A stretch of 64,000 nt of DNA from Malania oleifera (Eukaryota > Streptophyta > Magnoliopsida > Santalales > Ximeniaceae). Made by a program: the position numbers and the translations under genes. The notes under the pieces were generated by a model. It worked only from the letters and a program-made list of their open reading frames with translations. It was not told the DNA's origin and made no database searches. Shown here one piece after another: positions 20,035 through 61,090 of this stretch; the stretch's first letter is position 1; every line of letters starts with the position of its first letter. Location of the stretch: positions 9,691,062 to 9,755,061 of the forward strand of contig NC_080418.1 in the NCBI RefSeq assembly GCF_029873635.1. The letters run 5' to 3'.

Positions 20035-22004
20035 AGAGGTTCATGCGGCTCATGGTGTCACGCCCCAAACCCGTAGGTGGGTCCCAGGTGTGAATTTAAG
20101 TAACCTAACCTGTCTCTGTATCAATTTAAACATACATGATACCACATACAAAGAGGGTCCGACCCCGTGGGGTGAACGGAAACCCTATATACATACGTAT
20201 AATCCTCCATACTCATCAAAATACACAACGAAATATGGTCTTTTATACATAACCAATATCATACCAGAGTCTATACTAACAAGCTAGGATATACATTCCC
20301 ATAATACAAAACATACCCTAGGTGTCTACAAAACTATCCTGACGACCTGGATACCAAAACCTGTACCTAGCTAGTACTAGCAATAGCTACGACTGTAACA
20401 CCCCGACCCCGAGGGGCCTGGGATATTAACTTTTTACTACTAATTTACAGCGGAAGCAAAATAAACTCAATTTTTATTAAACCAGAGCACTAATATTCCA
20501 TATTACAATCATTTATTTCAAAAGAAGGAAAATTACACAAACATAAATATCTGAAACCATACTAATATTTCTAATCAATCTTTATTTTTCTAATCCCCAC
20601 CCGCATGCTTGTTAAGCCTGATTTCTGACATGTCCTTCAGAGTTATCTGAAATAAAATATGATTGGGGTGAGACGACGCTCAGTAAGTAAATAAGATTAT
20701 TATTAGTGTGTGGCCAAAATGAGTTTTTAAAGAATTTCGTAAAACAATAATGAATACTATAACTTCAAGATTTCTTTTAGAATAAACATAAATTTAACAA
20801 TTTCTGCATAAAACTTTTGTCATCAATTTCAACAGTAAATTTTTAAATCATATACTATAACTGCTAAATTAAACTTTTAACTTTAAAACTGTAAAAATAT
20901 TTAATGATAAACATACATATACTTTTCCTTATACGTTTTCCTTAGATCGTCATATAAGCACCAAAATGATCCTTTTCACGTAAACTTACACTTTTCCTTC
21001 AAATTATCAGTAACTTTGTACACGTAATTAAATATGTATAAACATATATTGTAAAAACCACCCTTAGGCCTGTTTGCCGTAAGTCATGTTTACCCCCATG
21101 ACTGGGTTGTGCGGTCCGAAGACTGGACTTAGCTGGCTGGCCGACCAAACTAAATCAACGTACGTAAACTTTAAGTGAGATTTTCCTTATTAAGTCCTGG
21201 ACTTAAACCAGGTGTGCACTCAGGAGAAATCCACTAACATAAATAACCACTCTGTAAACAGTGTGGGTGCACTCTGATCCGTATAAACTTTAAGCTGCGG
21301 TACCGAGCATCTGTAACTTTGAACTTTCGTTGCCATAAGGGGTTTGAAAATCATCTTATTATCATTTATGCAATTTAAAATAATATCGTGAAAATCTTAT
21401 CTTTACTCATATTTACATAAAAAATGTAACGTAGAAATAAACTCATGCCACACAATTTTTGTGTTAAAAATATATATATAATTTTATTTTTGAATAGAAA
21501 GAAATGCTGAAAATTTACCCGAGGGGATTGGAACATTTCTTAACCCAAAAATAGATGCAAGTATATTAAAGATAGAACTGGTATAATTAAATATGCGTGA
21601 AAATAAACTCATGAAAATTTTGTGGAACTAATTGACATAATTAAAATTTACGTACAAAATAAGCTCGGGTATGAATTTAAAATAAAAAGAAACTAACATA
21701 ATCAAAATTTACTTACAAATAAACTCGGGTATAAATTTTGAATAAAAATACTAACATAATCAAATTTACTTACAAATAAACTCGGGTATAAATTTTGAAT
21801 AAAAATACTAACATAATCAAATTTACTTACCTTCTTCTTTTACTGTGTGCTACGAACACAATAATTATCTTTAAGAAATGAGATCGGAAAAAGTGGGTGA
21901 TTAAGAATTTATTCAAAAATTCTCTCTCCACCACAAATTCTTTCACTCACTAATCCTTCTCTTCCTTGGAAAATTGTTGTGAAAAATCAAGGTTGAGAGC
22001 TCCC

Positions 22005-22012
22005 TATTTATA
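22005..22012 (-). promoter_or_regulatory. TATA box in the LTR of the homeobox-bearing element
   Basis: CCTATAAATAGGGAG on the minus strand is a strong plant TATA box (the same sequence lies at 27766-27773 in the other LTR). It sits about 1.2 kb inside the LTR, so U3 is about 1.2 kb and R/U5 about 1.6 kb. Confidence 0.65.
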
Positions 22013-22507
22013 GGAAAATTTTGGGGAAGAAATAGAATTTATAAAAGTGTGGGGAGATGGGTGAAATTAAAATTTTTAAAAATTAAAGAATGGGCAAGGG
22101 ATGGGCAAGGTATGGGTTGTGTGGAGGCTATTTGGGAGTGCTTGCCACCATTCCCACTAAATAAATTTTTAATTAATTACTTACCTAATTAATTAATCCA
22201 TTACCTAACTAATTATTTTATTATTTTATTATTTTTTCTTAATCATTATTATCATTATTATTATCATTGTTATTAATTTTAAACTTGAGTGGAGGCCATT
22301 TGGGAGTGCTTGCCACCATTCTCACTAAATAAATTTTTAATTAATTACTTACCTTATTAATTAATCCATTACCTAACTAATTATTTATTATTTTATTATT
22401 TTTCTTAATCATTATTATTATCATTGTTATTAATTTTAAACTATATTTATTATTTAATTTATTTTATTTAATTGTTGAACAAGAATTAAATTTAAATTTT
22501 AAAAACT

Positions 22508-22860
22508 CATGTGGGCCCCACATGGTCTTGTGGGCCCCATGTAGTCTTGTGGGCCCCACACAATTTCGAGACCCAAATGGATCGTACGTAATTCCAATAA
22601 CTCTTATACGATTTTATGCATCCTGCATAGTTTTGAGACTTGTGAAAACCTTCATATGGTTTCGGGACTCATGTGGGCCCCACACAGTCTTGTGGGCCCC
22701 GCATAGGATACCTATATTATTATTATTTTATCATATATTTCTTCAAATTATATCAGTTAAAACATTGTTTTATGTACTCATTTACGTATATAAACAGTGT
22801 CTTATGGCTCCGGGACTCATATGGACCCCACATAGTCTTGTGGGCCCCACATATGATACC
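22508..22860. promoter_or_regulatory. Array of GTGGGCCCCAC palindromes in U3
   Basis: About seven full or near copies of GTGGGCCCCA(C) occur in 350 bp, spaced unevenly. GTGGGNCC is the known core bound by plant TCP transcription factors, and TGGGCC is the site II element; binding here is inferred. The same array is at 28268-28620, and a reduced one lies in the related solo LTR at 32450-32580. Confidence 0.6.
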
Positions 22861-23155
22861 TATATTATTATCATCTTATTATGTATTTCTACAAATTATG
22901 TCTGTCAAAACACTATTTTATGTATATATACTTATTTACGTATACAAATAGTGTCTATCCTGTTTATCCTATGAAATTCCATTTTGACCAGGCCGACCTC
23001 TAGGGAGCGACTGAGCCGCAATGGTCTCTGAGCACTCGCTAAGACAAGGTCTTTCTTAGGCATCAAACATGGAATCAAGGATCCTACAGAAAAACACTTC
23101 TGTATTGATATTAACTTAATGACTATTTTTATTATTTTATTATTATTGTACTTTA

Positions 23156-23159
<4 letters not shown>

Positions 23160-23208
<49 letters not shown>
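23160..23208. repeat. AT microsatellite in LTR
   Basis: A perfect (AT)n run of about 50 bp. The corresponding run in the partner LTR (28921-28940) is about 20 bp, so the tract length has changed since insertion. Confidence 0.85.
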
Positions 23209-23211
<3 letters not shown>

Positions 23212-23221
23212 GGTCATCACA

Positions 23222-23260
23222 ATCTCCCCTCCTTATAAAAATTTCGTCCTCGAAATTTGC
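23222..23260 (-). other. Polypurine tract and conserved Tekay-type end of the internal region
   Basis: The minus strand reads CGAGGACGAAATTTTTATAA then GGAGGGGAGAT immediately before the LTR. The same sequence, slightly changed, precedes the 3' LTRs at 34933-34975 and 49851-49888. It primes plus-strand synthesis in this family. Confidence 0.75.
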
Positions 23261-23516
23261 TAATTTAAAATGAGTACTGTATAACTGGTTTGCGCTATTA
23301 GAAAGAGTAAATCGATTAATGATTTAATTAAGTCTTAGAATAGATTAAGAGTCAATTTGACGAAGTATTTTATTTTGGGAATTGAAGTGTGAATCGTCGG
23401 TCTAATAGTGGTTGAAATGGAAAAGAAATTCAGAAGATGTGGAAAAGGATAATTATATATATGTATATATATTATACATGTCCTATAAATAAATAAAAAT
23501 ATACGAGATCTGGCCT

Positions 23517-24209
23517 TTAGAGCCTTAGATCAACGTCAACATCTATCGCAGTACTAGCGGTGTCACTGCTAACCGCTTGGGTCCTTTCTTGGCAGAGTTG
23601 ACCTCTTATAATGTCGCCGGCTTGGGTCGGAAAAAGGGAGAGGACGCCCATTTGTTCGGCGAAGGAGGAAGAGCTGCTCTCTTCCCGAGTTATTGGTGGC
23701 CCATATATGAGTCTCATTGCGAATCGGGTTTGCTTGAAATGGTGAAGTAGGCCAGCATTATCCGAAACCCTTAGTGTGGTGACTGCGATATTGCCATTGT
23801 AAGGGGTATGGCTCATTGGTGAGATATTAGTTGTAAGTTTCACAGCCGGAATATTCTCGATAGGGAAGAGGGTTGGAAGAATGGCAGGGGCACTACTTGG
23901 GTCGGTAGTGGCGGAGGAGGTAATATGGAGAATTGTTGGGGCAGTAGTTGAGATAGTGGCTTCTCCAACTGATCCCCGCCTACGCCTACGGTTCTCAAAC
24001 CAAAAGCGTATATTTTTCGGCTCGATTGAACCATACCGTCGGAGTTGTGCTGCAAGCAAGATAGTCTGCTCCACTGAAGGGAGTTCCCCTTGACTGTTGT
24101 GGAAAACCTCCTCTAGAATCTCCAGCTGTGCCTTACCGGGTTTCCATCTTTGAATCAACGATCTAGTGCTGCTCTCAGCAACTTCGGGAGTTGGGTGATT
24201 TGGCAACAT
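23517..24209 (-). CDS. WUSCHEL-related (WOX-type) homeodomain protein inside an LTR retrotransposon
   Basis: The 230-aa protein has a WOX-type homeodomain at residues 19-80: RWKPGKAQLEILEEV, then LPSVEQTILLAAQLRRYG, then IEPKNIRFWFENRRRR. The spacing between helices 1, 2 and 3 is that of the enlarged WUS/WOX homeodomain, and W, F, N and R of the recognition helix are kept; position 50 is E where WOX proteins have Q. A WUS-box-like VLSLFPT lies at residues 189-195, and the C-terminus DVDLRL resembles an EAR repression motif. The start is the ATG at 24209; an in-frame TTG further up is not needed. The gene is intronless, whereas WUS genes usually split the homeodomain by an intron, which suggests capture from RNA. 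It lies in the element's sense with its own TATA box 120 bp upstream. It is probably a nuclear transcription factor; whether it is expressed is unknown. Confidence 0.85.
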   Translation of the reverse strand: MLPNHPTPEVAESSTRSLIQRWKPGKAQLEILEEVFHNSQGELPSVEQTILLAAQLRRYGSIEPKNIRFWFENRRRRRGSVGEATISTTAPTILHITSSATTDPSSAPAILPTLFPIENIPAVKLTTNISPMSHTPYNGNIAVTTLRVSDNAGLLHHFKQTRFAMRLIYGPPITREESSSSSFAEQMGVLSLFPTQAGDIIRGQLCQERTQAVSSDTASTAIDVDVDLRL

Positions 24210-24327
24210 TTTCGAGTAATGAGACAACTAAGAGACAAGTTGGGAAGAGCTAATCACTACAAACCGAAATGTGATTGTTCAAGATGATAGAAAACTGTGA
24301 TGCTTAGAGTTCGAGGAGGGCGTACCC

Positions 24328-24335
24328 TTTTTATA
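24328..24335 (-). promoter_or_regulatory. TATA box of the homeobox gene
   Basis: The minus strand reads CCCCTTATAAAAAGGG, with TATAAAAA about 120 bp before the ATG at 24209. It suggests that the gene has its own promoter, separate from the LTR promoter. Confidence 0.65.
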
Positions 24336-24349
24336 AGGGGATGACCGCG

Positions 24350-24710
24350 TGTTGTGGAAATCGAGAGAGAGCGACGTGTGTCACGGATATCGAGCAACGC
24401 ATTTTGCACAAATCGAGAGAGAACGATATGTGTCACGAGAATCAAGAGAGGGCGACACGTGTCATGGATATCAATCAACGCATTTTGCACAAATCGAGGG
24501 ATAACGATGTGTGTCGTGAGAACCGAGAGGGGGTGACGCGTGTCACAGATATCGATTAACGCGTTTTGCACAAATCGAGGGAGAACGACGTGTGTCACAA
24601 GAATCGAGAGAGAGCGACGCGTGTCACAGATATTGAGCAACGCGTTTTGCACAAATCGAGAGATAGCGACATGTGTCGCGGAAATTGAGCGAGTGACACG
24701 TATTGCAAAA
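24350..24710. repeat. 81-bp minisatellite upstream of the homeobox gene
   Basis: There are about 4.3 units with an exact 81-bp period (CAACGCATTTTGCACAAAT or variants start at 24395, 24476, 24557 and 24638). Each unit carries two ACGTGTGTCAC/ACACGTGTCA-type motifs, close to the G-box/ABRE core ACGTGTC. The 81-bp period is a multiple of three, which makes a long open frame by chance; I do not call it a gene. The repeat lies directly upstream of the TATA box. Confidence 0.8.
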
Positions 24711-24789
24711 TTTGCAAACTCTAGGTTCTTTTTATGTTTTTACATCTTTATTAATGCTTTAACTATAATTAATTTCATCCTTAGATCAC

Positions 24790-24955
24790 CACTTGGGTGG
24801 GTGGCCTAGTGGTAAGGAACCGGCCGTGCATCCATGTGATCACGGGTTCGAATCCCCACTACGCCCAAGTGGTCTCATGCCCTGACCTTGCTTCGGGGGT
24901 AAGTGAGCTATAGCCGATGATTTCCACCTATGAGGCCCATTTTTTTTTTTTTATA
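24790..24955 (+). mobile_element. tRNA-derived SINE inside the homeobox-bearing element
   Basis: The head looks like a tRNA: A box GGTGGCCTAGTGGTAAGGA, B box GGGTTCGAATCCCC and a closing GGGCG-like/CGCCC pairing. A body of about 90 bp and a T12 tail (24939-24950) follow. It is not a tRNA gene, since no good anticodon stem forms. It lies antisense to the homeobox gene. Confidence 0.7.
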
Positions 24956-24969
24956 ACCACAAGAGTACC

Positions 24970-24974
<5 letters not shown>

Positions 24975-25034
<60 letters not shown>
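24975..25034. repeat. AT microsatellite
   Basis: A perfect (TA)n run of about 60 bp just after the SINE tail. Confidence 0.9.
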
Positions 25035-25037
<3 letters not shown>

Positions 25038-25039
25038 CA

Positions 25040-26130
25040 TTAACATTAGTATTATTATTATTATTATTATTAGATCAAATAAATGTTGGGCATGTTTAGC
25101 CGATTGATGATTTGACATTGGTTAGTTATTTGAAGGAAATTAGTAAATTTTTATATTGCTTTCATTAAAAATATATATATATATATTTTTATATAGAAAA
25201 TTTTAAGTTGTATTAACTTTTAGAAAGTTATACAAAATTAAAAATTTCATCAAAATTTGTACTCCTAAATTAAACTTGGATACTTGATGGAAATTGAATA
25301 TGTAATGGGAAAAAAAAAAATAGATATACATATTTAACTTGCACATGCTAAGGGATTATATATATATATTGAATTTAAATATAATAAGTAATATTTAAAT
25401 GATATTTAATTCCTTATATACTAATACAAAATAAAAATTAAAGATTTTGTCAAAATATATATTCCTAAATTAAGCTTGAATGTTTTGTTGATAACTGAAT
25501 ATGTAATGTAAAAATACATATTCATATCCAACTTATACATGCAAAGAAATTTTGGGTAAATTCAGATTTCATAATAGACCGTTTGCTCATATCTATTTGT
25601 ATGTGTAGCACTTCTAAATTCAGTAGGGTCTAATAGGTTATTTCTTATAAATTTAGTGAAAATAACAACAGTAAAAATAATTAAATCTCAGATATTATTA
25701 TTATATTTATATATTAAAAAAAAATTTAAATTATCAATTGCATTTGACAATTAATTATGAATTATCAATACGGGTACGTGTTTCTACAAACATAAATAAC
25801 ATATTTAAATTAATTAACGTGTCTTCAATAATACTACCATTTTTCTCAGAGAATTTATAATTATTACCTATCCTTGGGAGCCTTCACGTAAATCTCATTT
25901 CCTCCAATGCTACTATCTTTAGGATCAATCCTTAAATAATAATCAAATGTTATTTTAAAATCATAAATCTATTATTAACGTATAATAATATAACAAACTA
26001 CAATAAATATTCTAAACTACCCAATCCTACCCAAATCATATTTTATACCTATGCTCTGATATATATTAGATTATGCAGAACCTATATCCTATGCTCTGGT
26101 AAAATTATTTCTTTAAAGTCTGCAGAACCT
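25040..26130. other. AT-rich leader of the homeobox-bearing element
   Basis: This is the region between the primer site and the homeobox gene unit, read on the minus strand. It is AT-rich, with no gag-like or other coding sequence. Two blocks at about 25255-25330 and 25450-25550 resemble each other (CCTAAATTAA(A/G)CTTG(G/A)A...). I see no other structure. Confidence 0.5.
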
Positions 26131-26137
26131 ATAACCT

Positions 26138-26153
26138 ATTGCTCTGATACCAA
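26138..26153 (-). other. Primer-binding site of the homeobox-bearing element
   Basis: The minus strand reads TTTGGTATCAGAGCAA directly inside the 5' LTR, complementary to the 3' end of initiator tRNA-Met. Confidence 0.9.
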
Positions 26154-26154
26154 A

Positions 26155-28953
26155 TGTAACACCCCGACCCCGAGGGGCCTGGGATATTAACTTTTTACTA
26201 CTAATTTACAGCGGAAGCAAAATAAACTCAATTTTTATTAAACCAGAGCACTAATATTCCATATTACAATCATTTATTTCAAAAGAAGGAAAATTACACA
26301 AACATAAATATCTGAAACCATACTAATATTTCTAATCAATCTTTATTTTTCTAATCCCCACCCGCATGCTTGTTAAGCCTGATTTCTGACATGTCCTTCA
26401 GAGTTATCTGAAATAAAATATGATTGGGGTGAGACGACGCTCAGTAAGTAAATAAGATTATTATTAGTGTGTGGCCAAAATGAGTTTTTAAAGAATTTCG
26501 TAAAACAATAATGAATACTATAACTTCAAGATTTCTTTTAGAATAAACATAAATTTAACAATTTCTGCATAAAACTTTTGTCATCAATTTCAACAGTAAA
26601 TTTTTAAATCATATACTATAACTGCTAAATTAAACTTTTAACTTTAAAACTGTAAAAATATTTAATGATAAACATACATATACTTTTCCTTATACGTTTT
26701 CCTTAGATCGTCATATAAGCACCAAAATGATCCTTTTCACGTAAACTTACACTTTTCCTTCAAATTATCAGTAACTTTGTACACGTAATTAAATATGTAT
26801 AAACATATATTGTAAAAACCACCCTTAGGCCTGTTTGCCGTAAGTCATGTTTACCCCCATGACTGGGTTGTGCGGTCCGAAGACTGGACTTAGCTGGCTG
26901 GCCGACCAAACTAAATCAACGTACGTAAACTTTAAGTGAGATTTTCCTTATTAAGTCCTGGACTTAAACCAGGTGTGCACTCAGGAGAAATCCACTAACA
27001 TAAATAACCACTCTGTAAACAGTGTGGGTGCACTCTGATCCGTATAAACTTTAAGCTGCGGTACCGAGCATCTGTAACTTTGAACTTTCGTTGCCATAAG
27101 GGGTTTGAAAATCATCTTATTATCATTTATGCAATTTAAAATAATATCGTGAAAATCTTATCTTTACTCATATTTACATAAAAAATGTAACGTAGAAATA
27201 AACTCATGCCACACAATTTTTGTGTTAAAAATATATATATAATTTTATTTTTGAATAGAAAGAAATGCTGAAAATTTACCCGAGGGGATTGGAACATTTC
27301 TTAACCCAAAAATAGATGCAAGTATATTAAAGATAGAACTGGTATAATTAAATATGCGTGAAAATAAACTCATGAAAATTTTGTGGAACTAATTGACATA
27401 ATTAAAATTTACGTACAAAATAAGCTCGGGTATGAATTTAAAATAAAAAGAAACTAACATAATCAAAATTTACTTACAAATAAACTCGGGTATAAATTTT
27501 GAATAAAAATACTAACATAATCAAATTTACTTACAAATAAACTCGGGTATAAATTTTGAATAAAAATACTAACATAATCAAATTTACTTACCTTCTTCTT
27601 TTACTGTGTGCTACGAACACAATAATTATCTTTAAGAAATGAGATCGGAAAAAGTGGGTGATTAAGAATTTATTCAAAAATTCTCTCTCCACCACAAATT
27701 CTTTCACTCACTAATCCTTCTCTTCCTTGGAAAATTGTTGTGAAAAATCAAGGTTGAGAGCTCCCTATTTATAGGAAAATTTTGGGGAAGAAATAGAATT
27801 TATAAAAGTGTGGGGAGATGGGTGAAATTAAAATTTTTAAAAATTAAAGAATGGGCAAGGGATGGGCAAGGTATGGGTTGTGTGGAGGCTATTTGGGAGT
27901 GCTTGCCACCATTCCCACTAAATAAATTTTTAATTAATTACTTACCTAATTAATTAATCCATTACCTAACTAATTATTTTATTATTTTATTATTTTTTCT
28001 TAATCATTATTATCATTATTATTATCATTGTTATTAATTTTAAACTTGAGTGGAGGCCATTTGGGAGTGCTTGCCACCATTCTCACTAAATAAATTTTTA
28101 ATTAATTACTTACCTTATTAATTAATCCATTACCTAACTAATTATTTTATTATTTTATTATTTTTCTTAATCATTATTATTATCATTGTTATTAATTTTA
28201 AACTATATTTAGTATTTATTTTATTTTATTTTATTTTTGAACAAGAATTAAATTTAAATTTTAAAAACTCATGTGGGCCCCACATGGTCTTGTGGGCCCC
28301 ATGTAGTCTTGTGGGCCCCACACAATTTCGAGACCCAAATGGATCGTACGTAATTCCAATAACTCTTATACGATTTTATGCATCCTGCATAGTTTTGAGA
28401 CTTGTGAAAACCTTCATACGGTTTCGGGACTCATGTGGGCCCCACACAGTCTTGTGGGCCCCGCATAGGATACCTATATTATTATTATTTTATCATATAT
28501 TTCTTCAAATTATATCAGTTAAAACATTGTTTTATGTACTCATTTACGTATATAAACAGTGTCTTATGGCTCCGGGACTCATATGGACCCCACATAGTCT
28601 TGTGGGCCCCACATATGATACCTATATTATTATCATCTTATTATGTATTTCTACAAATTATGTCTGTCAAAACACTATTTTATGTATATATACTTATTTA
28701 CGTATACAAATAGTGTCTATCCTGTTTATCCTATGAAATTCCATTTTGACCAGGCCGACCTCTAGGGAGCGACTGAGCCGCAATGGTCTCTGAGCACTCG
28801 CTAAGACAAGGTCTTTCTTAGGCATCAAACATGGAATCAAGGATCCTACAGAAAAACACTTCTGTATTGATATTAACTTAATGACTATTTTTATTATTTT
28901 ATTATTATTGTACTTTAATCATATATATATATATATATATTTGGGTCATCACA
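26155..28953 (-). repeat. 5' LTR of the homeobox-bearing element
   Basis: This 2799-bp LTR has the same landmarks as the 3' copy: TATA box at 27766-27773, GTGGGCCCCAC array at 28268-28620, (AT)n at 28921-28940. As the 5' LTR it would drive transcription leftwards through the homeobox gene. Confidence 0.92.
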
Positions 28954-29524
28954 ACGACACCCTTACTTCTAGATGCTAGGATGCTACTTACCGCTACCTG
29001 AAGGCCCTAAAAAATATTGTACGTACATTCGGGGTGAGACACCTCTCAGTAAGGAAGAAAACAGTTTATATCAAAGTGTGACATACCAGTATCATTTTAC
29101 ATACTTCATAACACTATACATACGATACAATTTCATACCAATACATGCAGTTCCAGTATTTTCAGAAAAACCATTCCAGTACATACGATACCTAACATAC
29201 ATATATACATACATACGGTCAGTGTTATCACACTAGTTTGCGACTACACCAGGTCACCTCGTCACACAACGACTACATTGCTACATACGCAACTACGCTG
29301 GAACGATCAAGGCCCAATGGTGAATCCATTACATCATACGCAACTACACAAGGTCACCTAGTCTCACAGCGATTACATTGTCATATGCAACTACGAAAAT
29401 CTACAACTCAGGCCCAATAGTGAATCCATTACTACATATGTAACTACACAAAGGTCACCTAATCTCACCACGATTACATTGCCATATACACAACTACACT
29501 GCGACGACCTAGGCCCACTGTGAA
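28954..29524 (-). repeat. Middle piece of the split 3' LTR of the Tekay-like element
   Basis: This matches 39880-40470 of the intact LTR (shared CTAGGATGCTACTTACCGCT and ACTACACAAGGTCACCTAGT). It lies between the homeobox-bearing element and the solo LTR at 29525. Confidence 0.85.
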
Positions 29525-30595: not shown

Positions 30596-30641
<46 letters not shown>

Positions 30642-33600
30642 AACACCCCAACCCCGAAGGGTCTGGGATATTTACTTTTTATCATTGATTTACAGCGGAA
30701 GCAAATAAACTCAATTATTATTAAATCAGAGCGCTAATTATCTATATTACAATCATTTATTTCAAAAGAAGAAAAATTACACAAACATAAATATCTGAAA
30801 TCATACTAATATTTATAATTAATCTTTATTTTTCTAATCCCCACCTACATGCTTGCTAAGCTTGATTTCCGACATGCCCTTTAGAGTTATCTGAAATAAA
30901 AATATGATTGGAGTGAGACGACGTTCAGTAAGTAAATAAGGATATTATTAGTGTGTGGTCAAAATGAGTTTTTAAAAAATTTCGTAAAACAATATTTAAT
31001 ACTATAACATCAAGACTGCTTTTAGAATAAATATAAATTTAAAAATTACTACATAAAACTTTTACCATCAATTACAACAGTAAAATTTTAAAATCATATA
31101 CTATAACTGTTAAATTAAACTTTTAACTTTAAAACTGTAAAAATATTTAATGATAAACATACATATACTTTTCCTTATATGTTTTCCTTAGATCGTCATT
31201 TAAGCACTAGAATGATCATTTTCTTGTAAACTTACACTTTTCCTTTAAATCATCAGTAACTTTGTACACGTAATTAAATATGTATAAACATATATTGTAA
31301 AAACCACCCTTAGACCTATTTTCCGTAAGTCATGTTTACCTCAATGACTGGGTTGTGCGGTTCAAAGACTGAACTTAGCTGGCTGGCCGACCAAACTAAA
31401 TCAACGTACGTAAACTTTAAGTGAGATTTTCCTTATTAAGTCCTGGTCCGGAATTAGGTGTGCACTCAGGATAAATCCACTAACATAAATAACCACTCTG
31501 TAAACAGTGTGGGTGCACTCTGATCCGTATAAACTTTAAGCTGCGGTACCGAACATCTATAACTTTGAAGTTTCGTTGCCATAAGGGATTTTAAAATCAT
31601 CTTATTATAATTTATGCAATTTAAAATAATATCGTGAAAATCTCATATTTACTCATTTTTTTATGAAAAAAAATGCAACGTAGAAATAAACTCATGGTAC
31701 ACAATTTTTGTATTAAAAATATATATAATTTCTTTTTTTTTAATAGAAAGAAATGCTGAAAATTTACCCAAGGGGATTAAAACATTTCTTAATCCAAAAA
31801 TAAATGCAAGTATATTAAAGATAGAACTGGTATAATTAAATAGACGTAAAAATAAACTCATGAAAATTTTATGGAACTAAGTAACATAATTGAAATTTAC
31901 TTATAAAATAAACTCGGGTATGAATTTTAAATAAAACAAATTAACATAATCAAATTTACTTACCTTCTTCTTTTACCTTGTGCTACGAATACAAAATTAT
32001 CTCTAAGAAATGAGATCGGAAAAAGTGGGTGAGTAAGAACTTACTCAAAAATTCTCTCTCCACCACAAATTCTTTTTCTCACTAATCATTCTCTTCCTTG
32101 GAAAAATTGTTATGAAAAATGAAGGTTGAGAGCTTCCTATTTATAGGAAAATTTTGGGAAAGAAATGAAATTTATAAAAGTGTAGGGATGGGCAAGGTAT
32201 GGGTTGAGTATGGGATGGGGATGGAGGCCATGTGGGAGTGCTTGCCACTATTCCCATTAAGTAAATTTTTAATTAATTACTTACCTAACTAATTAATTAA
32301 TTAGTTAATTAATTATTTTATTATTTTTCTTAATCATTATTATCATTATTATTAACATTGTTATTACTTTTAAACTATTTTTAGTATTTATTTATTTTAT
32401 TATTTATTTTTGAACAAGAATTAAATTTGAATTTTGAAAACTCACGTGGGCCCCACATAACTTCAAGACTCAAGTGGGTCCTATGTAACTCCAATAATCC
32501 TTATACGGTTTTATGAGCTCTACATAACTCCGGGACTCATGTTAATCCCACACGACTTCGGGACTCATGTGGGCCCCACATATGATACCTATATTATTTT
32601 TTTTATCTTACTATGTATTTCTATAAATTATGTCTGTCAAAATACTATTTTATGTATATGTACTTATTTACGTATACAAAAAGAGTTTATTCTATTTATC
32701 CTATGAAATTCTATTTTGACTAGTCCGACCTCTATGGAGCAACTGAGCCACAATGATCTTTGAGTACTCACTTAGACAATACTTTCTTAGGCATCAAACA
32801 TGGAATCAAGAATCCTATAGAAAAACATTTCTGTATTGATATTAACTAAATGACCATTTTTATTATTATTGTGCTTTTAATTGTATATATATTTTTGGGT
32901 CATCACAAATATATTATATGATATCAGACCTTGTTGAACTTGCAGCTCCAGAGCTCAGTACCGTTGCTACAGACATTATGTTACCTTATCAGTGCAACCA
33001 CCTATTCAGATAATACGTGGTAAGGTCAATTACCTAGGTCCTTGAAGAGGTTAGGCTCCCCATCCAGATATGGGTTGAGGTGGGCAGATCGACTCACGAA
33101 GTTCAGTGATTTATTCTTGGTTGGCCAGTCATGGTAAATCCATCCTACGGGCCACACAACCTTGTCATGAGGGGGCAAGTCATGACGCACAGATAGCCAC
33201 AGGGAACAGTTTCAGTTACTATTACATACGTACGGATTTATAGAAACAGGGACCATACTTATGTACACTAGAAGTACTTTGAATTATAACCATAATACTG
33301 TTATGTTAAGCAATAAGGAAAAGGGGTGGTGTATTTTATTATTTGTACTGTACTTTCGTATTCGGTTAATCATGTTTATATAAAAACAGATTTCATGATA
33401 TATAGTAGCTCATTTGTCACACACTAGTAATAGCATATTTCTTCTTACTGAGCGTTGGCTCATCCCAGTGTTGAAACATTTTTCAAGTGATCCAGGCAGG
33501 TGAGCAGATCAGGCTCGTAGGTAGAGAGGCGTCTGTAGTGTCTTGACAGTAGAGTGAGTATCATTTTTGGGAGCATTTTTGTATAGCCCTCACCAGTTGA

Positions 33601-33799
33601 GGTTATTTTGGGAACAGTGATATATCTATATTTTGAGATTACATACTAGCACTCTGGTATTGTACATAAACGTATGTGAATATGTTTATATGATTTCTGC
33701 TTCTCGCTGCTTAGGTTAATGATGTGGTGTCAGAGTATGTTAATTATTACAGTATATATATTTATATATAAAACCCACTTTATTAAACAAGTAGTTACA
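29525..33799 (+). mobile_element. Solo LTR related to the left-edge gypsy family, itself interrupted
   Basis: The ends are TGAAG and TTACA, with a perfect 5-bp target duplication GTGAA (29520-29524 and 33800-33804). Without the nested solo LTR it is about 2.0 kb. Several stretches match the LTR at 1200-3237 in reverse (for example CCTAAGCAGCGAGAAGC and the GGTTGGCCAGTCATGG region). It has a TCGTCGACGA-type array (29650-29840) followed by a strong TATA box at 29857-29863 (CCTATAAATAG) and a CT-rich stretch. No internal region remains, as after LTR-LTR recombination. Confidence 0.75.
30639..32907 (-). mobile_element. Solo LTR of the homeobox-bearing element's family
   Basis: It runs from TGTAACACCCCAACCCC to GGGTCATCACA on the plus strand, matching the LTRs at 20394 and 26155 along its length but with clear divergence and a shorter GTGGGCCCCAC array. 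Flanking TATAT/AATAT is a likely target duplication inside an AT microsatellite (30600-30638). It shows that this LTR family has inserted here more than once. Confidence 0.85.
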
Positions 33800-33804
33800 G
33801 TGAA

Positions 33805-34932
33805 TCCATTACAACATATGATGTAGCATATAGCTCACACCACTTCGGTGACCAACCAGAATGAGACTGGTGATATTTCACACCCTCGGATATAGAGCCG
33901 GCCACACTCGGCTTACGGTAATTAGCCGCCCCTAGCCGATTTCACAAAACCTAGAATCATTTTGGACCTCACGTCCCTATACATTTCAGCGTACAGTAAT
34001 TAGCCGCCACATAGCTGTTTTACAAATACCTGGAACAAAGACATACATTCATACATCCCACACTTATTTAGTTTACAGAAAATCATATAAATTACAATTT
34101 CAAGTATACAGTTTATGCAAATATGGATTACGATCACCTCAATAATACAGTTTTAACGTAAACAACAATTTTCCAAACAAAATAGAGATGATACTCAAAA
34201 TCCCCAATTTTCCTGAAAAACTATAACCTGAAAATCCCGTATTTTTACCCAATAGATTTTCCCAAATAAGTAGTCATAACATACATACGATCGTAGCCTA
34301 CAAGCTTACCGATCCTGATTTTGAAAATGGACTGATATAAAAAGAATCCCCTTACCTTAACCTGAATTCCAACTACAAACTTTACGATCCTCAAAAGTAC
34401 GAACCGAGACTCCAAAACCTACAAACCATAGTTCAAAACATACTTACAATCCGTACTACTACACATATACTGAATCAAAAATGAAAACCGAGCCTTACCT
34501 CGATTTTGGCCCGAAACCCGAAATCGCTCCAAACGAGATTCCGATCCGCTAGAAACGTAGAGAATCCTTCACTGATCCTCGCAGTAACTTTGGATTTTTG
34601 AATCCGGTGACAAACGGCGAAGAAATCAAAGAGAGAGAGAGAGAGAGAGAGCTTTTGGGAAAACTTAGCCCCAAAGCAACCCCTAAAGATCTTTTATAAG
34701 CCTTTGACCCGAGGGGCTTCGTTGACAAAAAGGTGTCATCTTCGACAAGGCCTTCAGGGATTTCGTCGATGAGGCAGCGATTTCGTCGACGAACCCTGAT
34801 ATTTAAATTTTCTTGGACCCCTCGGCTTTTTCTCATCGACGAAATCCGGCTTCATCGACGAACCTGCTCTTTTACCAAAATGTCCCTCTCATTACATAAA
34901 TAAACCCCATTATCACGGTTCGGGTTCTTACA
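33805..34932 (-). repeat. Outer piece of the split 3' LTR of the Tekay-like element
   Basis: This matches 40475-41616. It contains a (GA)n tract (34629-34650), a TATAAAAG box (about 34692-34699, minus) and the TCGTCGACGA array (34716-34862). It ends TTCTTACA next to the polypurine tract. Confidence 0.85.
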
Positions 34933-37900
34933 ATCTCTCCTCCTTACAAAAATTTCGTCCTCGAAATTTGCAATCTCTCTTTACAATCGCATTCATACTA
35001 CTACATACATACCTACTCTGAGGTGAAACAGTGACTATCTATACGTAGTCCCTCTACGATACATACACACATACTCTAGAGAATACGGCAGCCATTTATA
35101 TGCAGTCCCGTTACGATACATACATACATGCTCTAGAGAATACGACGGCCATTTATACGCAGCCCCGTTACGATACATACATACATGCTCTAGAGAATAC
35201 GACGGCCATTTATACGCAGCCCCGTTACGATACATACATACATGCTCTAGAGAATACGACGGCCATTTATACGTAGCCCCATTACAATACATACATACAT
35301 GCTCTAGAGAATACGCCAGCCATTTATACGCAGCCCTGTTACAATAAATACATACATGCCCTCACTTATGGCGGAGAAATACCGTGGTCACATACATACA
35401 CGATCTTAGGAGCTCACAATACAACAGGACTCTCCTAGAGACTAACCACTACGTACAATATGATAAGAGAGGTTTACATACATACATACTCATGCCACCT
35501 TGCTATCCAAATACTATTCAAAACAACTGCGGATACTTCCGGCGTATTTCTGTCTCTAGTTCCCAAGAAGATTCCTCAACCTCGTGGTTTCGCCACAATA
35601 CCTTCACTAATGGTATCTTTTTCGTACGAAACTTCTGAACTTTATGGTCCAGAACCTGAACAGGTATCTCCTCATACGCTAAAGTATCCTCAAGTCCCAA
35701 GGACTCGTAATTGATAACATGCGATGGATTCAACACGTATCTCCTCAACATGGATACGTGAAATACACATTGGACCCTTAAGAGTGCTGGGGGTAATGTA
35801 ACTCTATAGGCTACCGAACCTACTCGCTCAAGTACCTTGAATGGTCCGATATACCTCGGGCTCAACTTGCCCTTCCTTCTGGAATAGGCATAGGTTGTAA
35901 CAGCCTTGCCGGTCTCTGATGTTCAGCCTTCACCTGCTGACACGTCAGGAACTGCTTCACAAACCAAGCAATATCTCTCTTCATACCACTCCACCAGAAG
36001 GACTCCCGCAAATCCTGATACATCTTCGTACTACCCAGATGTACCGTATACAGAGAACAATGCGCTTCCTCCAAAATCGTCCTTCTGATCTCATCATTAT
36101 TTGGAACGCATAGCCTGGTCCCAAATCTCAAGACTCCTCTATCAGAGATGTTAAAGTCTGTAGCCAAACCCTGCTACACTTTCTCCACAATCCCAGTTAA
36201 CTCTACATCATTAGCCTGCGCAGCTTTAATACACTCAAACAACGTCGATTGGATTACCAAGCTAGCAATGAAAGCCTGATGATCGCCAAATACCAACTCC
36301 ACACCTAGGCTTTCTAGATCTCGCCTAACATGATGCTGAGCTACAACTGCAATTACCGCCGCATACTCTGACTTCCAACTCAACGCATCTGCTACCACAT
36401 TAGCCTTTCTAGGGTGATTACTGATCGTGCAATCGTAGTCCTTAATCAACTCTAGTCACCACCTCTGTCTCATATTCAACTCCTTCTATGTGAAAAAGTA
36501 CCTGAGGCTTTTGTCGTCAGTGAAAATCTCACACTGAACACCGTACAAGTAGTGTCGCCAGATCTTTAGTGCATATACCACAGTAGTCAACTCTAAGTCA
36601 TGCGTAAGGTAATTCTTCTCATACTCTTTCAGTTGCCGAGAAGCATAAGCTACCACTTTACCCTGTTGCATAAGTACACATCACAAACCCTTCAAGGACG
36701 CGTCGCTATAAATCACAAAATCCCCATCCCCCGAAGGAATGGTCAATACTGGAGCAGTAACCAGCCGGTGCTTCAACTCGAGAAAACACTGCTCGCAATC
36801 ACTAGTCCAGTCAAACTTCACTCCTTTCTTAGTCAACCGTGTCAGAGGTCCAGACAGTTTAGAAAATCCCTCCACAAACCGATGATAGTAACCCACCAGT
36901 CCCAGAAAACTCTGAAGCTCCTACACATTCTTCGGTCTAGCCCAGTCGACCATAGCTTCGATCTTGCTAGGATCAACCGAGATACCGCCCTCAGACACCA
37001 CATGGCCTAGGAACGCGACCTAACTCAACCAGAACTCACACTTCTTCAGCTTAGCATATAGCTTCTTCTCTCGCAGAATCTGTAGCACCAACCTTAAATG
37101 TTCCAGATGCTCTTCCATACTCCTCTAGTATACCAGAATGTTGTCAATGAATACCACTACGAATCAATCTAGGTACTCATGGAAAACCTCGTTCATCAAA
37201 TCCATGAACACTGCCGGAGCATTGGTCAGCCCAAATGGCATAACCAAGAATTCATAATGGTCGTATCTAGTTCGGAAAGCATTCTTCGCTACATCCTCAT
37301 ATCTAACCTTCACCTGATAATACCCTGATCGTAGATCGATCTTTGAAAAGACCTACGTTCACTGAATTTGGTCAAAAAGATCATCTATACGAGGTAAAGG
37401 GTAACGGTTCTTTACCGTCACTTTGTTGATCTCACGGTAATCAATGCACATACGCATCAACCCGTCCTTCTTCTTCACAAATAATAATGGAGCTCCCCAG
37501 GGCGAAACACTAGGTTGAATGAATCCCCTGTCCAATAATTCCTGCAACTGCTCCTTCAACTCCCGAAATTCTGCTGGAGCCATCCGGTATAGAGCTTTAG
37601 AGATCGGTGCCTTACTAGTCAGCAACTCAATCGTAAACTCCACCTCACGATCTGGAGGTAAACCAGGTAAGTCGTTTGGAAACATATCTGGAAACTCGTT
37701 GACCACCCGAATGTCCTCGAATCTCAACTCGTCCCGTGGCGGTTCCTTCACACAAGCTAGGTACCCTTGACAACCATCCAAGAGTAACCTCCTCGCCTGT
37801 AAAGTTGATAGAATCTGTGGCGTAGAATGCACACACGATCCAGCGAACTCAAACTCTTGCTTCCCAGGAGGTCTGAACACTACTACCTTCCTACGACAAC

Positions 37901-39596
37901 CAATCACCACATAGCTGGAGAACAACCAATACATTCCCAGTATGACGTCAAAACCTGACATGTCGTATACTCAAGGTTCGCCGATAACAGTCTCTCCTGA
38001 ATCACCACTGGGTAGTCTCCGAACATTTTACTACACATCATTATACTTCCACTCAGCGTAGCCACAACCAAACATTCCTCCAAAAGTTGGGTTTCAACCC
38101 CACACAATTTCACAAATCTAGCATATATGAATGAATGGGTTACCCCCGAATCAAATAAAACAATAGCTCTATTTGAAAGCAATAACATGGTACTTGTCAC
38201 TGCATTCCCAGCGTGTTCTGCATCTGATGGAGTAAGTAAATATACTCTCGCCGGAGCTGTAGTTCCCTGATAATTCACCCGAGGCACCTGGTCACTTCCA
38301 CTGCTCTGACTCGGTGCAGGCATAATCCTCCTCGGTTCCCGGTAGTTCTTCGCTATGTGGCCCAATTCATCACAGTTGTAGCAAACACCCCAGAATGGCT
38401 GACACTCGCCCTCATGCCATTTACGGCACTTCACACACGGTGCAGGGGATGGATTCCCCTGAAAACTCAACCACTCAGTGTTCTGCCGATAACTAGAGCT
38501 GTAATTCTTCTTCTTCTTCTTCTTCCACTATCTCTGCTGAGAACCACTCTGAGGACCAGAAGATAATGGCCTCTTCCCCTGAACCTGTACTATCTCATCT
38601 CCTCGAAGATCGGTCTCAACTATGGTGGCTTTATCCACCAGGACAGAGGACTCATGGATCTGCAGCATCCCCACCAGATGGCGGATGTCTTTCCTTAGAC
38701 CCCTCGCGAAACCTTCAAGCCTTCTCATGCTCATTCGGAACCAAGTACGGTGCAAATCGAGACAACTCGATAAATCTAGCAGCATACGTCTGCACCGTCA
38801 AAGTACCTTGTGTCAGGCCTGAAAACTTATTGGCCTTTGCATCCCGAGTGGAGACCGGAAAGTATCTCTCAAAAAATACCTCCTTGAAACGACCCCACGT
38901 CATACAAGATGGACCAGCTCTTTACCGCTCCAGCAGGCTCACTGACGTCTACCATCGCCCTGCCTCCCTAGTCAACTAGAAGGTAGCGTACAATACCTTC
39001 TACTTCTCAATGCAGTGGAGGACTTCCAAAATTCTCTCGGTCTGCTTAACCCAATCCTCCGCCACTATCGGATCAGATCCTCCCGTGAATGTCGGAGGGT
39101 GCATGCATGTGAACCTCTCAATGGTACACCCCGCATCAGTAGGAGAGCTCTCGCGTCTCCTAACACTCCACCCAATCTCTCGAATCACCTATCTCGCTAA
39201 ACCACGAGACACAAAAGGAGACTCGTTGCTCGCCGTCTCCTCGGACCCACTCTCCAAGTTATTATCCTTGGGCTCCATACTGAAAATAGAATAGGAATCG
39301 GTTAGAATTCCTATATCGGACACAATTAACATAATCATAGACCAAATCATGTCAACTATTACTCTCACAAGTCTCAGCCTGTCCCGTCACACCGACACGA
39401 AAGTCGTCAATGATCTGCCCTGCCTTTACTAGAATCGTCATTCCAGGAAAAACACAGAATACCACCGACACATCCCAATCTAGCAACAAAATAACCCTTG
39501 ACCAACACTACCCATTTCCTATATCCTATACTCTGGTATGTACACATCAATACTCCTAACCAAGTCTACAAGACCTAACAACCTGGTTAGCTAAGC
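34933..39596 (-). mobile_element. Internal region (gag-pol fossil) of the minus Tekay-like element
   Basis: Reading leftwards: gag (about 38500-39290), zinc knuckle CYNCDELGHIAKNC (about 38350-38390), protease region (about 37950-38200), reverse transcriptase (about 36900-37900, with [20 protein letters not shown]), RNase H (about 36480-36900), integrase with its zinc-binding domain (about 35870-36450), and a chromodomain-like end (35518-35650, PLVKVLWRNHEVEESSWE). The order and the chromodomain-like end place it in the chromoviruses, most likely Tekay/Del. It is a broken fossil with roughly ten interruptions. Confidence 0.85.
35041..35370. repeat. Tandem repeat of about 60 bp beside the polypurine tract
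   Basis: About five units of ATACATACATACATGCTCTAG and AATACGACGGCCATTTATAC occur between the end of the pol region and the polypurine tract. Four similar units lie at the matching place in the relative (49590-49800), so the array is a family trait. Confidence 0.8.
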
Positions 39597-41292
39597 TATC
39601 ACACCCCAAACCCGCAAGTGGGTCCTAGGTGTGAATTTAAGTAACCTAACCTGTCTCTGTATCAATTTAAACACCACATACAAAGAGGGTCCAACCCCGT
39701 GGGGTGAATGAAAACCCTATATACATACGTACAATCCTCCATACTTATCATACCAGAGTCTATACTATACAAGCTAGGATATACATTCCCATAATACAAA
39801 ACATACCCCAAGTGTCTACAAAACTATCCTGATGACCTAGATACCAAAACTCGTACCTAGCCGGTACTAGCAGTAGCTATGACACCCTTGCTTCCAGATG
39901 CTAGGATGCTACTTACCGCTACGTGAAGGCCCTATAAAAATATTGTACGTACATTCAGGGTGACACACCTCTCAGTAAGGAAGAAAACAGTTTATATCAG
40001 TGTGTGGCATACCAGTGTCATTTTACATACTTCATAACACTATACATACGATACAATTTGAAACAATTCGTACAGTTTCATACAAATACATACAGTTCCA
40101 ATATTTTCAGAAAAACCATTCCAGTTCATACGATACCCAACATACATACATACATACATATGGTCAGTGTCGTTACATTAGTTTGCAACTACACTAGGTC
40201 ACCTCGTCTCACAGCGAATACATTGCTATATACGCAACTACGCTTCAACGATCAAGGCCCAATGGTGAATCCATTCCATCATACGCAACTACACAAGGTC
40301 ACCTAGTCTCACAGCGATTACATTGTCATATGCAACTACGAAGATCTACGACTCAGGCCCAATAGTGAATCCATTGCTACATACGCAACTACACAAAGGT
40401 CACCTAATCTCACCATGATTACATTGCCATATACACAACTACGCTGTGACGACCTAGGCCCACTGTGAATCCATTGCAACATACGATGTAGCATATAGCT
40501 CACACCACTTCGGTGACCAACCGGAATTAGACTAGTGATATTTCACACCCTCGGATATAGAGCCAGTCACTCTTGGCATACGGTAATTAGCCACCCCTAG
40601 CTGATTTCACAAAACCTGGAATCATTTTGGAACTCACGTCCCTATACATTTCAGCGTATGGTAATTAGCCGCCACATAACTGTTTTACAAATACTCGGAA
40701 CAAATACATACATTCATACATACCACACTTATTTGGTTTATGGAAAATCATATTAATTACAATTTCAAGTATACAGTTTATGCAAATATGGATTACGGTC
40801 ACCTCAATAATACAGTTTTAATGCAAACAATAGTTTTCCAAACAAAATAGAGATGATACCCGAAATTCCTAATTTTCCTGAAAAACTGCAACCCAAAAAT
40901 CCCGTATTTTTACCCAATAAGTTTCCTCAAATAAGTAGTCATAACATACATATGATCGTAGCCTATAAGTTTACCGATCCTAATTTTGAAAATGGACTAA
41001 TATGAATAGAATCCCCTTACCTTAACCCAAATTCCAACTATGAACTTTACGGTCCTCAAAACTACGAATCGAGACTCCAAAACCTACAAACCATAGTACA
41101 AAACATACTTACAATCCGTACTACTACACATATACTGAATCAGAAATGAAAATCGAGCCTTACCTTGATTTTGGCCCAAAACCCAAAATCGCTCCAAACG
41201 AGATTCTAATCCGCTAGAAACGTAGAGAATCCTTCACTGATCCTCATAGTAACTTTGGATTTGTGAATCCGGTGACAAACAGCGAAGGAATC

Positions 41293-41327
<35 letters not shown>

Positions 41328-41616
41328 TTGGGAAAACTTAGCCCCAAAGATCTTTTATAAGCCTTTGACCCGTGGGGCTTCGTCGACGAAAAGGTATCCT
41401 CGTCGACGAGGTCTTCAGGGATTTCGTCGACGAGGCAGCGATTTCATCGACGAACCCTGATATTTAAATTTTCCTGGACCCCTCGACTTTTTCTTGTCGA
41501 CGAGGCTTTGAATTTCGTCGACGAGAAAAAAAGGCTTCGTCGACGAACCTGCTCTTTTACCAAAATTCCCTCTCTTTACATATATAAACTCCATTATCAT
41601 GGTTCGGGTTCTTACA
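39597..41616 (-). repeat. 5' LTR of the minus Tekay-like element
   Basis: A 2.0-kb LTR, unbroken by insertions. It carries the TCGTCGACGA array (41378-41548), a TATA box (CTTATAAAAG, about 41355-41362, minus) and a (GA)n tract (41296-41324). Its outer end joins the target copy CATGG at 41617. Confidence 0.9.
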
Positions 41617-41934
41617 CATGGAAAGTCGCAAGCATCATAGAGATTCAAGTGTAATTTACCAAAAGAAGATAAAACAAATAAGAACCACGACATATTCTTA
41701 ATTTCTTGTTATGAAATGAAAACACAAGTTGCAGCTACATAGAAAGAGCATAACAGAGAGAGACAGAGAGAGAATGAATGCATGGGCAGAAAAAGAAACG
41801 GGGCATGGATTCCTAATGATAATATGACACCAAAAATCAGATGGGCATTTCCCATTTCCTGAAAAATAAAAAAGGGAAGCTGAGAGAAAAAGCACTACAT
41901 ATCAGAGAAACATTAGGAAACTGATTGCGTGAGT

Positions 41935-42113
41935 TTCTTGAGGACCATTCTCCTTAAATCTCGGATGGTCCTACGAGATTTGGCTGCTTGCCATTCAAAT
42001 CCTGCAGGACCACCCTGCGAGATTATGTAAGCATTAAAATGGAAATTTTTTTTCCAATTAAAGTATTATTTAATATTTTATTAAATAATAAAATTAAAAT
42101 GGGAAAAAACTCC
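41935..42113 (+). repeat. Right terminal inverted repeat of the Pack-MULE
   Basis: This is the reverse complement of the left end (19387-19580) with moderate divergence. It ends in GGGAAAAAACTCC next to the 9-bp target copy ACATATTGC. Confidence 0.65.
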
Positions 42114-42785: not shown

Positions 42786-42819
<34 letters not shown>

Positions 42820-60985: not shown

Positions 60986-61090
60986 GAACTATTGATGGTG
61001 AAGACTTACAAATCTAACTTCATTGCAAGAAATCAATCAAATCATGTGGAATGTAACAAGGAGATTCAATTATACGAGCTGGCATGATCC

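What the first reader, a model, noticed from the sequence alone, without database searches (positions are those of the whole stretch)
20394..28953. An LTR retrotransposon that carries a WUSCHEL/WOX-type homeobox gene instead of gag-pol
The element has perfect 5-bp target duplications, two near-identical 2.8-kb LTRs, a tRNA-Met primer site and a polypurine tract. Its only clear gene is an uninterrupted 230-aa WOX-type homeodomain protein (23517-24209) in the element's sense. WOX proteins control stem cells and organ growth in plants, so a mobile, LTR-driven copy could spread a developmental regulator and change where it is expressed. Gene capture by plant LTR elements is known in general; I know of no described family built around a WOX gene. 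That the gene moves as a stable part of a family is inference.
Basis: partly seen in the sequence, partly recalled or inferred. Interest (0 to 1): 0.88.

Follow-up and report, generated by a model that had tools for sequence, protein, structure and literature searches.

The report
Jumping element carrying a plant stem-cell-type gene
A recently inserted plant retrotransposon that lacks its own replication genes carries an intact gene related to the WUSCHEL stem-cell regulators, a kind of cargo already reported once, in wild beans, so it is probably a second, distant example rather than a new kind of thing.

Summary
20394-28953 is a young LTR retrotransposon, sense on the minus strand. It has 5-bp ACGAC target duplications, LTRs 99.8% identical, a tRNA-Met-type primer site and a polypurine tract; three paralogous target sites without it lie in the window. 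None of 34 internal ORFs matches gag-pol. The 230-codon intronless ORF (23517-24209, minus) is a WUSCHEL/WOX-type homeodomain protein (Pfam 3.5e-9; WUSCHEL structure 1.7e-10) with a WUS-box-like LSLFP and an unusual WFEN recognition helix.
One close database relative was found: Malania oleifera LOC131144967, 70% identical over 159 columns, beyond the homeodomain. The window is probably Malania too, so a diverged second gene copy probably exists. Whether that copy lies in an LTR element, and the family's size, could not be tested; genome search did not complete (15 tries).
LTR-driven expression of the protein is doubtful: 3.5-kb leader with 60 ATGs, against none from a TATA motif 126 nt before the start. 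Evidence for selection is weak and mixed.
The claim of no precedent fails: a 2023 meeting report describes more than 1000 WOX copies in Vigna riukiuensis, mostly LTR-flanked. I file it as a new member of a known kind, a non-autonomous LTR element with a captured gene.

The parts
20389..20393 (.). target-site duplication ACGAC, left copy
   Evidence: direct reading
20394..23221 (-). 3' LTR (element sense is minus), 2828 bp, TG...CA
   Evidence: 99.785% identical to the other LTR over 2786 columns
23222..23234 (-). polypurine tract AAGGAGGGGAGAT next to the 3' LTR; the 39 bp 23222-23260 are 95% and 90% identical to the corresponding stretch of two gypsy elements in the window
   Evidence: E 2.7e-11 and 1.4e-8
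23517..24209 (-). intronless 230-codon WUSCHEL/WOX-type homeodomain ORF: Pfam homeodomain residues 20-77, WUS-box-like VLSLFP (residues 189-194), C-terminus DVDVDLRL
24210..24348 (-). candidate own promoter and 5' leader: TATAAAAA starting at 24335, about 94-nt predicted leader without any ATG
   Evidence: sequence motif only, start site assumed 32 nt after the motif; one of five TATA-like matches between the LTRs
24359..24677 (-). 3.9 tandem copies of an 81-bp unit upstream of the ORF
24785..24960 (+). SINE-like insertion: tRNA box A TGGCCTAGTGG (24802), box B GGTTCGAATCC (24845), T-rich tail; probably a passenger
   Evidence: pattern match; box consensus recalled
24961..26140 (-). very AT-rich (21% GC) leader region, no Pfam match in its ORFs
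26141..26152 (-). primer binding site TGGTATCAGAGC
   Evidence: identity as tRNA-Met type recalled
26155..28953 (-). 5' LTR, 2799 bp; TATA box TATAAATA at 27773
28954..28958 (.). target-site duplication ACGAC, right copy
30639..32907 (-). related solo LTR of the same group (91% over its best 1328 columns); no sequence like the WOX internal region beside it

Best explanation
A non-autonomous Ty3/gypsy-type LTR retrotransposon captured a WUSCHEL-clade WOX gene, probably through a spliced RNA since the ORF has no intron, and now replicates with it as part of the element, moved in trans by gag-pol of gypsy elements. This copy jumped roughly 70-130 thousand years ago into the LTR of another gypsy element. 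Shown: element structure, young age, intact WOX-type ORF in the element's sense, no recognisable gag-pol. Inferred: capture from RNA, gypsy membership and trans-mobilisation, that the gene moves as a stable family part, and that the protein, if made, comes from the TATA motif just upstream of the ORF rather than from the LTR. The protein would be a fast-evolving DNA-binding factor with a changed recognition helix (WFEN). Most likely it is cargo that is tolerated; a regulatory role for host or element is possible but hardly supported.
For: LTRs, target duplications, primer site, polypurine tract, three paralogous empty sites. 34 internal ORFs of 40 aa or more listed, 34 of 34 scanned against Pfam: only the WOX ORF matches a family at E up to 0.01. 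WOX homology by profile, sequence and fold (the first 11 of 28 fold matches are WUSCHEL or STENOFOLIA homeodomains, the best at rmsd 1.2). A Malania relative with the same conserved tail and the same WFEN change. Shared 39-bp polypurine region with gag-pol elements in the window. Leader ATG count 60 against 0. LTR divergence 5 of 2785, giving 69-128 ky at 1.3e-8 and 7e-9 (the first rate is the one used for Malania in PMC6377399, passages; the second is recalled).
Against: No second full element containing the gene was seen; genome search did not complete. P0001's genomic surroundings are unknown. Homeodomain and tail are about equally diverged between the two copies (43 of 58 and 68 of 98 identical), unlike a conserved WOX factor. 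The 39-bp shared motif does not prove gypsy membership or that those elements are the partner. The internal TATA is a motif match only, one of five between the LTRs, and the 3.5-kb leader could be spliced out. Arabidopsis WOX genes range down to one exon, so absence of introns alone does not prove capture from RNA.
Confidence: 0.74

Rival explanations
1. One-off capture: only this copy (or a tiny lineage) has the gene, the bulk of the LTR family lacks it, and the ORF is intact merely because the insertion is young.
For: LTRs differ at 5 of 2785 sites, so an intact frame needs no selection since insertion. No homeodomain-specific conservation. Only one close relative protein seen in two searches (best 120 of 4926 listed).
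Against: P0001 is 30% diverged, so the gene type has existed in more than one copy far longer than this insertion. Its divergence is frame-preserving, with conservative changes 19 of 45 against 27% expected; 33 of 2000 neutral runs reached this.
Confidence: 0.2
2. The WOX gene gives the element an advantage, for example expression in stem-cell or germ-line precursors or control of the element's own promoter, and is maintained by selection on the element.
For: Intact ORF with homeodomain core, WUS-box-like motif and a candidate own promoter. Weak excess of conservative changes. WOX cargo is reported in Vigna. Retand elements carry extra ORFs, some with DNA-binding domains, that their author suggests are regulatory.
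Against: WUS-type sites (TAAT, TGAA, TGAATGAA, TTAATGG, CACGTG; chosen from recall and the titles) are not enriched in LTR, leader or upstream module over 200 shuffles each (only the short core ACGT was, in LTR and leader). The homeodomain is not clearly better conserved than the tail. No expression data.
Confidence: 0.15
3. The ORF, its upstream repeats and the SINE-like piece were inserted into an already integrated LTR element, so the gene is not part of the mobile unit.
For: The GC-rich module (ORF 49%, repeats 47%) lies among stretches of 21-29% GC. A SINE-like piece (52% GC) shows that insertions probably did occur.
Against: LTR age leaves little time after integration. No shared word of 9 or more bases between 23235-23530 and 24690-24800; two of 8 bases, about what chance gives (the chance figure is my own estimate). 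The ORF lies in the element's sense, as transduced retroviral genes usually do.
Confidence: 0.1
4. Chance ORF or spurious homology, or an assembly artefact.
For: An ORF of this length appears in 1-2 of 500 shuffles.
Against: Significant profile, sequence and fold matches, a 70%-identical annotated protein, and LTRs that differ by point changes and a microsatellite.
Confidence: 0.01

Closest known systems
LTR-flanked amplified WOX genes of Vigna marina and V. riukiuensis (meeting report PMC10714607; passages and section 7 read)
   Same: WOX-family gene between near-identical LTRs with target duplications; recent activity
   Different: Legume, not Santalales; more than 1000 WOX copies reported in V. 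riukiuensis, copy number here unknown; relatedness of LTRs and genes not tested; no hit named Vigna among the 120 listed of 4926 (many rows carry no name)
Maize Bs1 and other gene-transducing plant LTR elements (PMC13317346, passages; PMC3726574, passages)
   Same: Host gene sequence carried inside an LTR element
   Different: Bs1 carries segments of three genes, none full length; here one apparently complete regulatory ORF and no recognisable gag-pol
Retand gypsy elements (PMC11963269, passages and discussion)
   Same: Extra ORF encoding a possibly DNA-binding protein, and tandem repeats in the 3' part of the internal region
   Different: Retand ORFs are mainly antisense, with TRP28 in 97% of clusters, LTRs 315-1194 bp; here sense, WOX-type, LTR 2.8 kb, no gag-pol
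WUSCHEL-clade WOX transcription factors
   Same: Homeodomain, IE.KN motif, WUS-box-like LSLFP, WUS-type fold
   Different: Intronless, WFEN instead of WFQN, basic RRRRR after it instead of HKARE, long branch (1.34 substitutions per site)

Membership tests
LTR retrotransposon | paired direct LTRs with TG...CA ends and target duplication | tested here: met
LTR retrotransposon | primer binding site and polypurine tract | tested here: met
   tRNA identity recalled
autonomous Ty3/gypsy element | gag, protease, RT, RNase H, integrase | tested here: not met
   34 of 34 internal ORFs of 40 aa or more scanned against Pfam, none matches these; badly broken frames under 40 aa not scanned
Ty3/gypsy lineage (as non-autonomous derivative) | shared non-coding cis regions with a gag-pol partner | tested here: inconclusive
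   39 bp at 95% and 90% next to the 3' LTR; apart from about 14 adjoining bases no match between the LTR and the gypsy LTRs of the window at E 1e-5
WOX family | WOX-type homeodomain | tested here: met
WOX family, WUS clade | WUS box T-L-x-L-F-P | tested here: inconclusive
   VLSLFP at 189-194: L.LFP met (530 of 200000 shuffles of residues 81-230), first T is V; consensus recalled
WOX family | WFQN recognition helix (Q50) | tested here: not met
   WFEN in window and P0001; position number recalled
host WOX gene | introns (2-4 exons in cotton, 1-4 in Arabidopsis, PMC5501002) | tested here: not met
   single uninterrupted frame
Vigna-type WOX-carrying LTR family | many copies with gene and LTRs | not testable with these tools
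   The genome search unreachable in 15 tries; one close relative protein only
Retand | antisense TRP28 ORF and LTR of 315-1194 bp | tested here: not met
   sense ORF with a homeodomain, LTR 2.8 kb; the library scanned was Pfam only

The most novel reading that the evidence does not exclude
LTR retrotransposons have repeatedly and independently taken up WOX stem-cell regulators as a functional accessory gene with its own promoter, in at least two distant eudicot lines (Vigna and Malania), because driving stem-cell or germ-line-precursor programmes helps the element be expressed where insertions are inherited. The WFEN homeodomain would be an element-specific form.
Probability: 0.15. Interest if true: 0.85.

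Novelty: new member of a known kind. Interest (0 to 1): 0.5.

Why it matters
If several copies carry the gene, plants as far apart as Vigna and (probably) a Santalales tree would both host retrotransposons loaded with a stem-cell-type regulator. That would make testable whether mobile elements gain from carrying developmental genes, and whether such copies alter meristem or organ growth. If it is a single lineage of passive cargo, it is one more captured gene among the hundreds known (672, 1,343 and 424 counted in rice, sorghum and maize, PMC3726574).

Tried and rejected
LTR-driven translation of the ORF: 3530-nt leader with 60 ATGs, against 94 nt and none from the internal TATA, start sites assumed 32-35 nt after each motif; disfavoured, though splicing is not excluded. 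Four other TATA-like matches lie between the LTRs (25713, 25195, 25155, 24955), so the motif at 24335 is not unique.

Self-regulation through WUS-type sites: no enrichment in LTR, leader or upstream module over 200 shuffles each. ACGT was enriched in LTR (2 of 200) and leader (1 of 200), which I do not interpret.

Placing the gene in one WOX sub-clade: the homeodomain tree separates window and P0001 from the rest at 100, but the deep nodes among the other WOX have 44-54. One search aligned the window gap-free with WUSCHEL but with a gap to STENOFOLIA, which suggested WUSCHEL itself; in the joint alignment the gaps fall in different places, so I give 'modern/WUS clade' only.

Selection test without DNA of P0001: conservative changes 19 of 45 against 27% expected (33 of 2000), mean BLOSUM reached in 55 of 2000, no-stop 250 of 2000, zero frameshift about 0.03 with an assumed 80% of indels frameshifting. 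These lean to constraint, most weakly the stop count, and are weakened by how the relative was found (an annotated open gene model, local alignment ends). Within the homeodomain only 5 of 15 changes are conservative, in the tail 14 of 30. A first version of the simulation gave no-stop 275 of 2000. P0001's N-terminal 59 residues have no significant match in the window.

Own insertion footprint of the gene module: no shared word of 9 bases or more between 23235-23530 and 24690-24800, two of 8 bases. Beyond the SINE-like piece (24940-25100) the shared words of 9-10 bases are AT-repeat only.

Relatives in viral contigs: 6 stretches matched a pattern, none a relative. P0123, second, is a WOX13-like protein with two homeodomains, not an element protein (label recalled).
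Full report
What is there. The window holds an LTR retrotransposon at 20394-28953 whose sense is the minus strand. The two LTRs (20394-23221 and 26155-28953) align over 2786 columns at 99.785%, with five mismatches and one gap. The element starts TG and ends CA and is flanked by ACGAC on both sides. Read in its sense, the 5' LTR is followed after two bases by TGGTATCAGAGC (the plant tRNA-Met primer site, recalled), and AAGGAGGGGAGAT precedes the 3' LTR. The element sits inside a repeat that also forms the LTRs of gypsy elements in the window. Three paralogous stretches (39599-40470, 44646-43733, 51996-51122) run across the site without it. With 5 differences in 2785 sites the insertion is about 69 ky old at 1.3e-8 per site and year, or 128 ky at 7e-9. 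The first is the rate used for Malania in PMC6377399 (passages); the second is recalled.

The gene. ORF 23517-24209 (minus) has 230 codons from ATG to TAA. Frames of 236 codons or more occurred in 1 of 500 shuffles of 23222-24740 and in 2 of 500 of 23517-24740, so length alone is only suggestive. Homology settles it. Pfam Homeodomain is matched at 3.5e-9. Solved structures matched at E up to 1 are WUSCHEL (1.7e-10), STENOFOLIA (2.1e-10) and, weakly, the worm ceh-37 protein (0.26). An AlphaFold model from 13 aligned sequences (window, P0001 and 11 listed WOX proteins) is confident only over the homeodomain (about residues 21-79); 122 of 230 residues fall below 50. Its first 11 of 28 fold matches are all WUSCHEL or STENOFOLIA homeodomains. 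The tail contains LSLFP, as in the WUS box (recalled consensus); L.LFP arose in 530 of 200000 shuffles of residues 81-230. The recognition helix reads WFEN in place of WFQN, also in the Malania relative.

No gag-pol. The internal region has 34 ORFs of 40 residues or more, stop to stop (some run into the LTRs). I scanned 34 of 34 against Pfam. Only the WOX ORF matched a family at E up to 0.01; a 131-residue piece of the repeat ORF had one 0.039 match below its cut-off. The 39 bp next to the 3' LTR are 95% and 90% identical to the same place in two gypsy elements of the window. One of these has gag, RT, RNase H and integrase zinc-finger matches in separate frames. This fits, but does not prove, trans-mobilisation by gypsy proteins.

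Relatives. A single-sequence search of 5.8 billion proteins scored 431 candidates and returned 1 at E up to 1e-3: P0001, Malania oleifera LOC131144967 (Santalales), E 3.9e-63. It is identical at 111 of 159 columns, far beyond the homeodomain. A profile search with the window protein, P0001 and four WOX homeodomains (two, two from memory) gave 4926 hits among the 7980 candidates scored. P0001 led at 472 bits, followed by a WOX13-like protein at 121 bits; the rest of the 120 listed lie between 102 and 94 bits, and those with a name are WUS/WOX-type, plain homeobox, hypothetical or unnamed-product entries, one called tubulin-like. I read 14 of them besides P0001. No further element-type protein was recognised in that list; the other 4806 were not shown. 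A scan of viral contigs found no relative.

Species. The metal-tolerance gene at 59858-60985 found its own record on a 151.8-Mb contig, and none of the 120 listed of 663 hits is named Malania, though many rows carry no name; Malania is annotated in that database. The window is therefore probably Malania, and P0001, on a 156.9-Mb contig, probably a second gene copy on another chromosome. This is inference. It matters because 30% protein divergence means the gene type is much older than this insertion.

Expression. From the LTR TATA box at 27773 the RNA would carry about 3530 nt with 60 ATGs before the ORF. From TATAAAAA at 24335 the leader would be about 94 nt with none (starts assumed 32-35 nt after the motif). 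Four other TATA-like motifs lie in the internal region. Just upstream are 3.9 tandem 81-bp units. Repeats and ORF are GC-rich (47% and 49%) among stretches of 21-29% GC, except for the SINE-like piece at 52%. I read this as a gene module with its own promoter. That is motif evidence only.

Selection. The homeodomain is not clearly better conserved than the rest between the two copies: 43 of 58 and 68 of 98. Neutral simulations calibrated on the LTR/solo-LTR comparison gave 27% conservative changes against 42% seen (33 of 2000 runs reached it). 250 of 2000 runs kept an open frame, and the chance of no frameshift was about 0.03 under an assumed 80%. These lean to constraint but suffer from the way the relative was found. 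A test for WUS-type sites in the element was negative.

Origin of the gene. WOX genes have two to four exons in cotton and one to four in Arabidopsis (PMC5501002, passages). An uninterrupted ORF thus suggests, without proving, capture through RNA. In a tree of 13 homeodomains (8 of the 120 listed proteins, P0001 among them and one of them contributing two domains, plus window, PDB WUSCHEL and two recalled ones; clade labels for most are mine) window and P0001 stand apart from the rest at 100 on a long branch, with unresolved placement. I looked for an insertion footprint of the module and found two shared 8-base words only.

Precedent. PMC10714607 (passages; section 7) reports that Vigna marina and V. 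riukiuensis have many WOX copies, more than 1000 in the latter, mostly between identical LTRs with target duplications. Searches for a full paper on it found none (listed 1 of 1, 15 of 15 and 10 of 26). Searches on LTR elements with WUSCHEL, WOX or homeobox genes (listed 3 of 3, 13 of 13, 15 of 88, 12 of 138, 12 of 51) and on Malania (10 of 24) showed no report of this element in titles or abstract starts; the papers not listed were not seen. The two Malania genome papers were read as passages only; neither homeobox nor WUSCHEL occurs in the main text of PMC6377399. That paper kept as intact only elements with complete Gag-Pol, so this one would have been passed over. Gene capture by LTR elements at large is well known (PMC13317346; PMC3726574; passages). 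Retand elements carry mainly antisense ORFs, some with DNA-binding domains, and tandem repeats (PMC11963269, passages and discussion).

Verdict. The finding is real and well described, with the corrections that the gene lies on the minus strand, that LTR-driven expression is unlikely, and that a precedent exists. It is most likely a second, distant case of a WOX gene carried by a non-autonomous LTR element. Family status remains open because the genome search could not be run.

Noticed in passing
window 30639-32907: Solo LTR of the same group as the WOX element (91% over its best 1328 columns) 1.7 kb downstream, beside an AT repeat, without a perfect target duplication.
   Followed up: partly
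window 24785-24960: SINE-like sequence with tRNA box A and box B and a T-rich tail inside the WOX element; no other copy in the window by blastn at E 0.01.
   Followed up: partly
window 24359-24677: 81-bp tandem repeat (3.9 copies) that stays open as a 160-codon frame on the minus strand (24257-24739), no Pfam match at 0.01.
   Followed up: partly
window 33797-51996: Gypsy elements in both orientations with gag, protease, RT, RNase H and integrase matches in separate frames; related LTR sequence hosts the WOX element.
   Followed up: partly
window 3960-4042 and 4364-4446 (-): Two tandem tRNA-Ser(AGA) genes about 400 bp apart.
   Followed up: no
window 58133-58642 (+) and 59855-60988 (-): Host genes: a Ras/Rab-type GTPase exon and a single-frame metal tolerance (cation efflux) protein, the latter used to guess the species.
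   Followed up: partly
P0123 (Acacia pycnantha K1719_000283): A WOX13-like protein with two tandem homeodomains, with WFQY and WFRS in place of WFQN.
   Followed up: no
window LTR 26155-28953 and leader 24961-26154: ACGT tetramers exceed shuffles (2 of 200 and 1 of 200 reached the count); meaning unknown.
   Followed up: no
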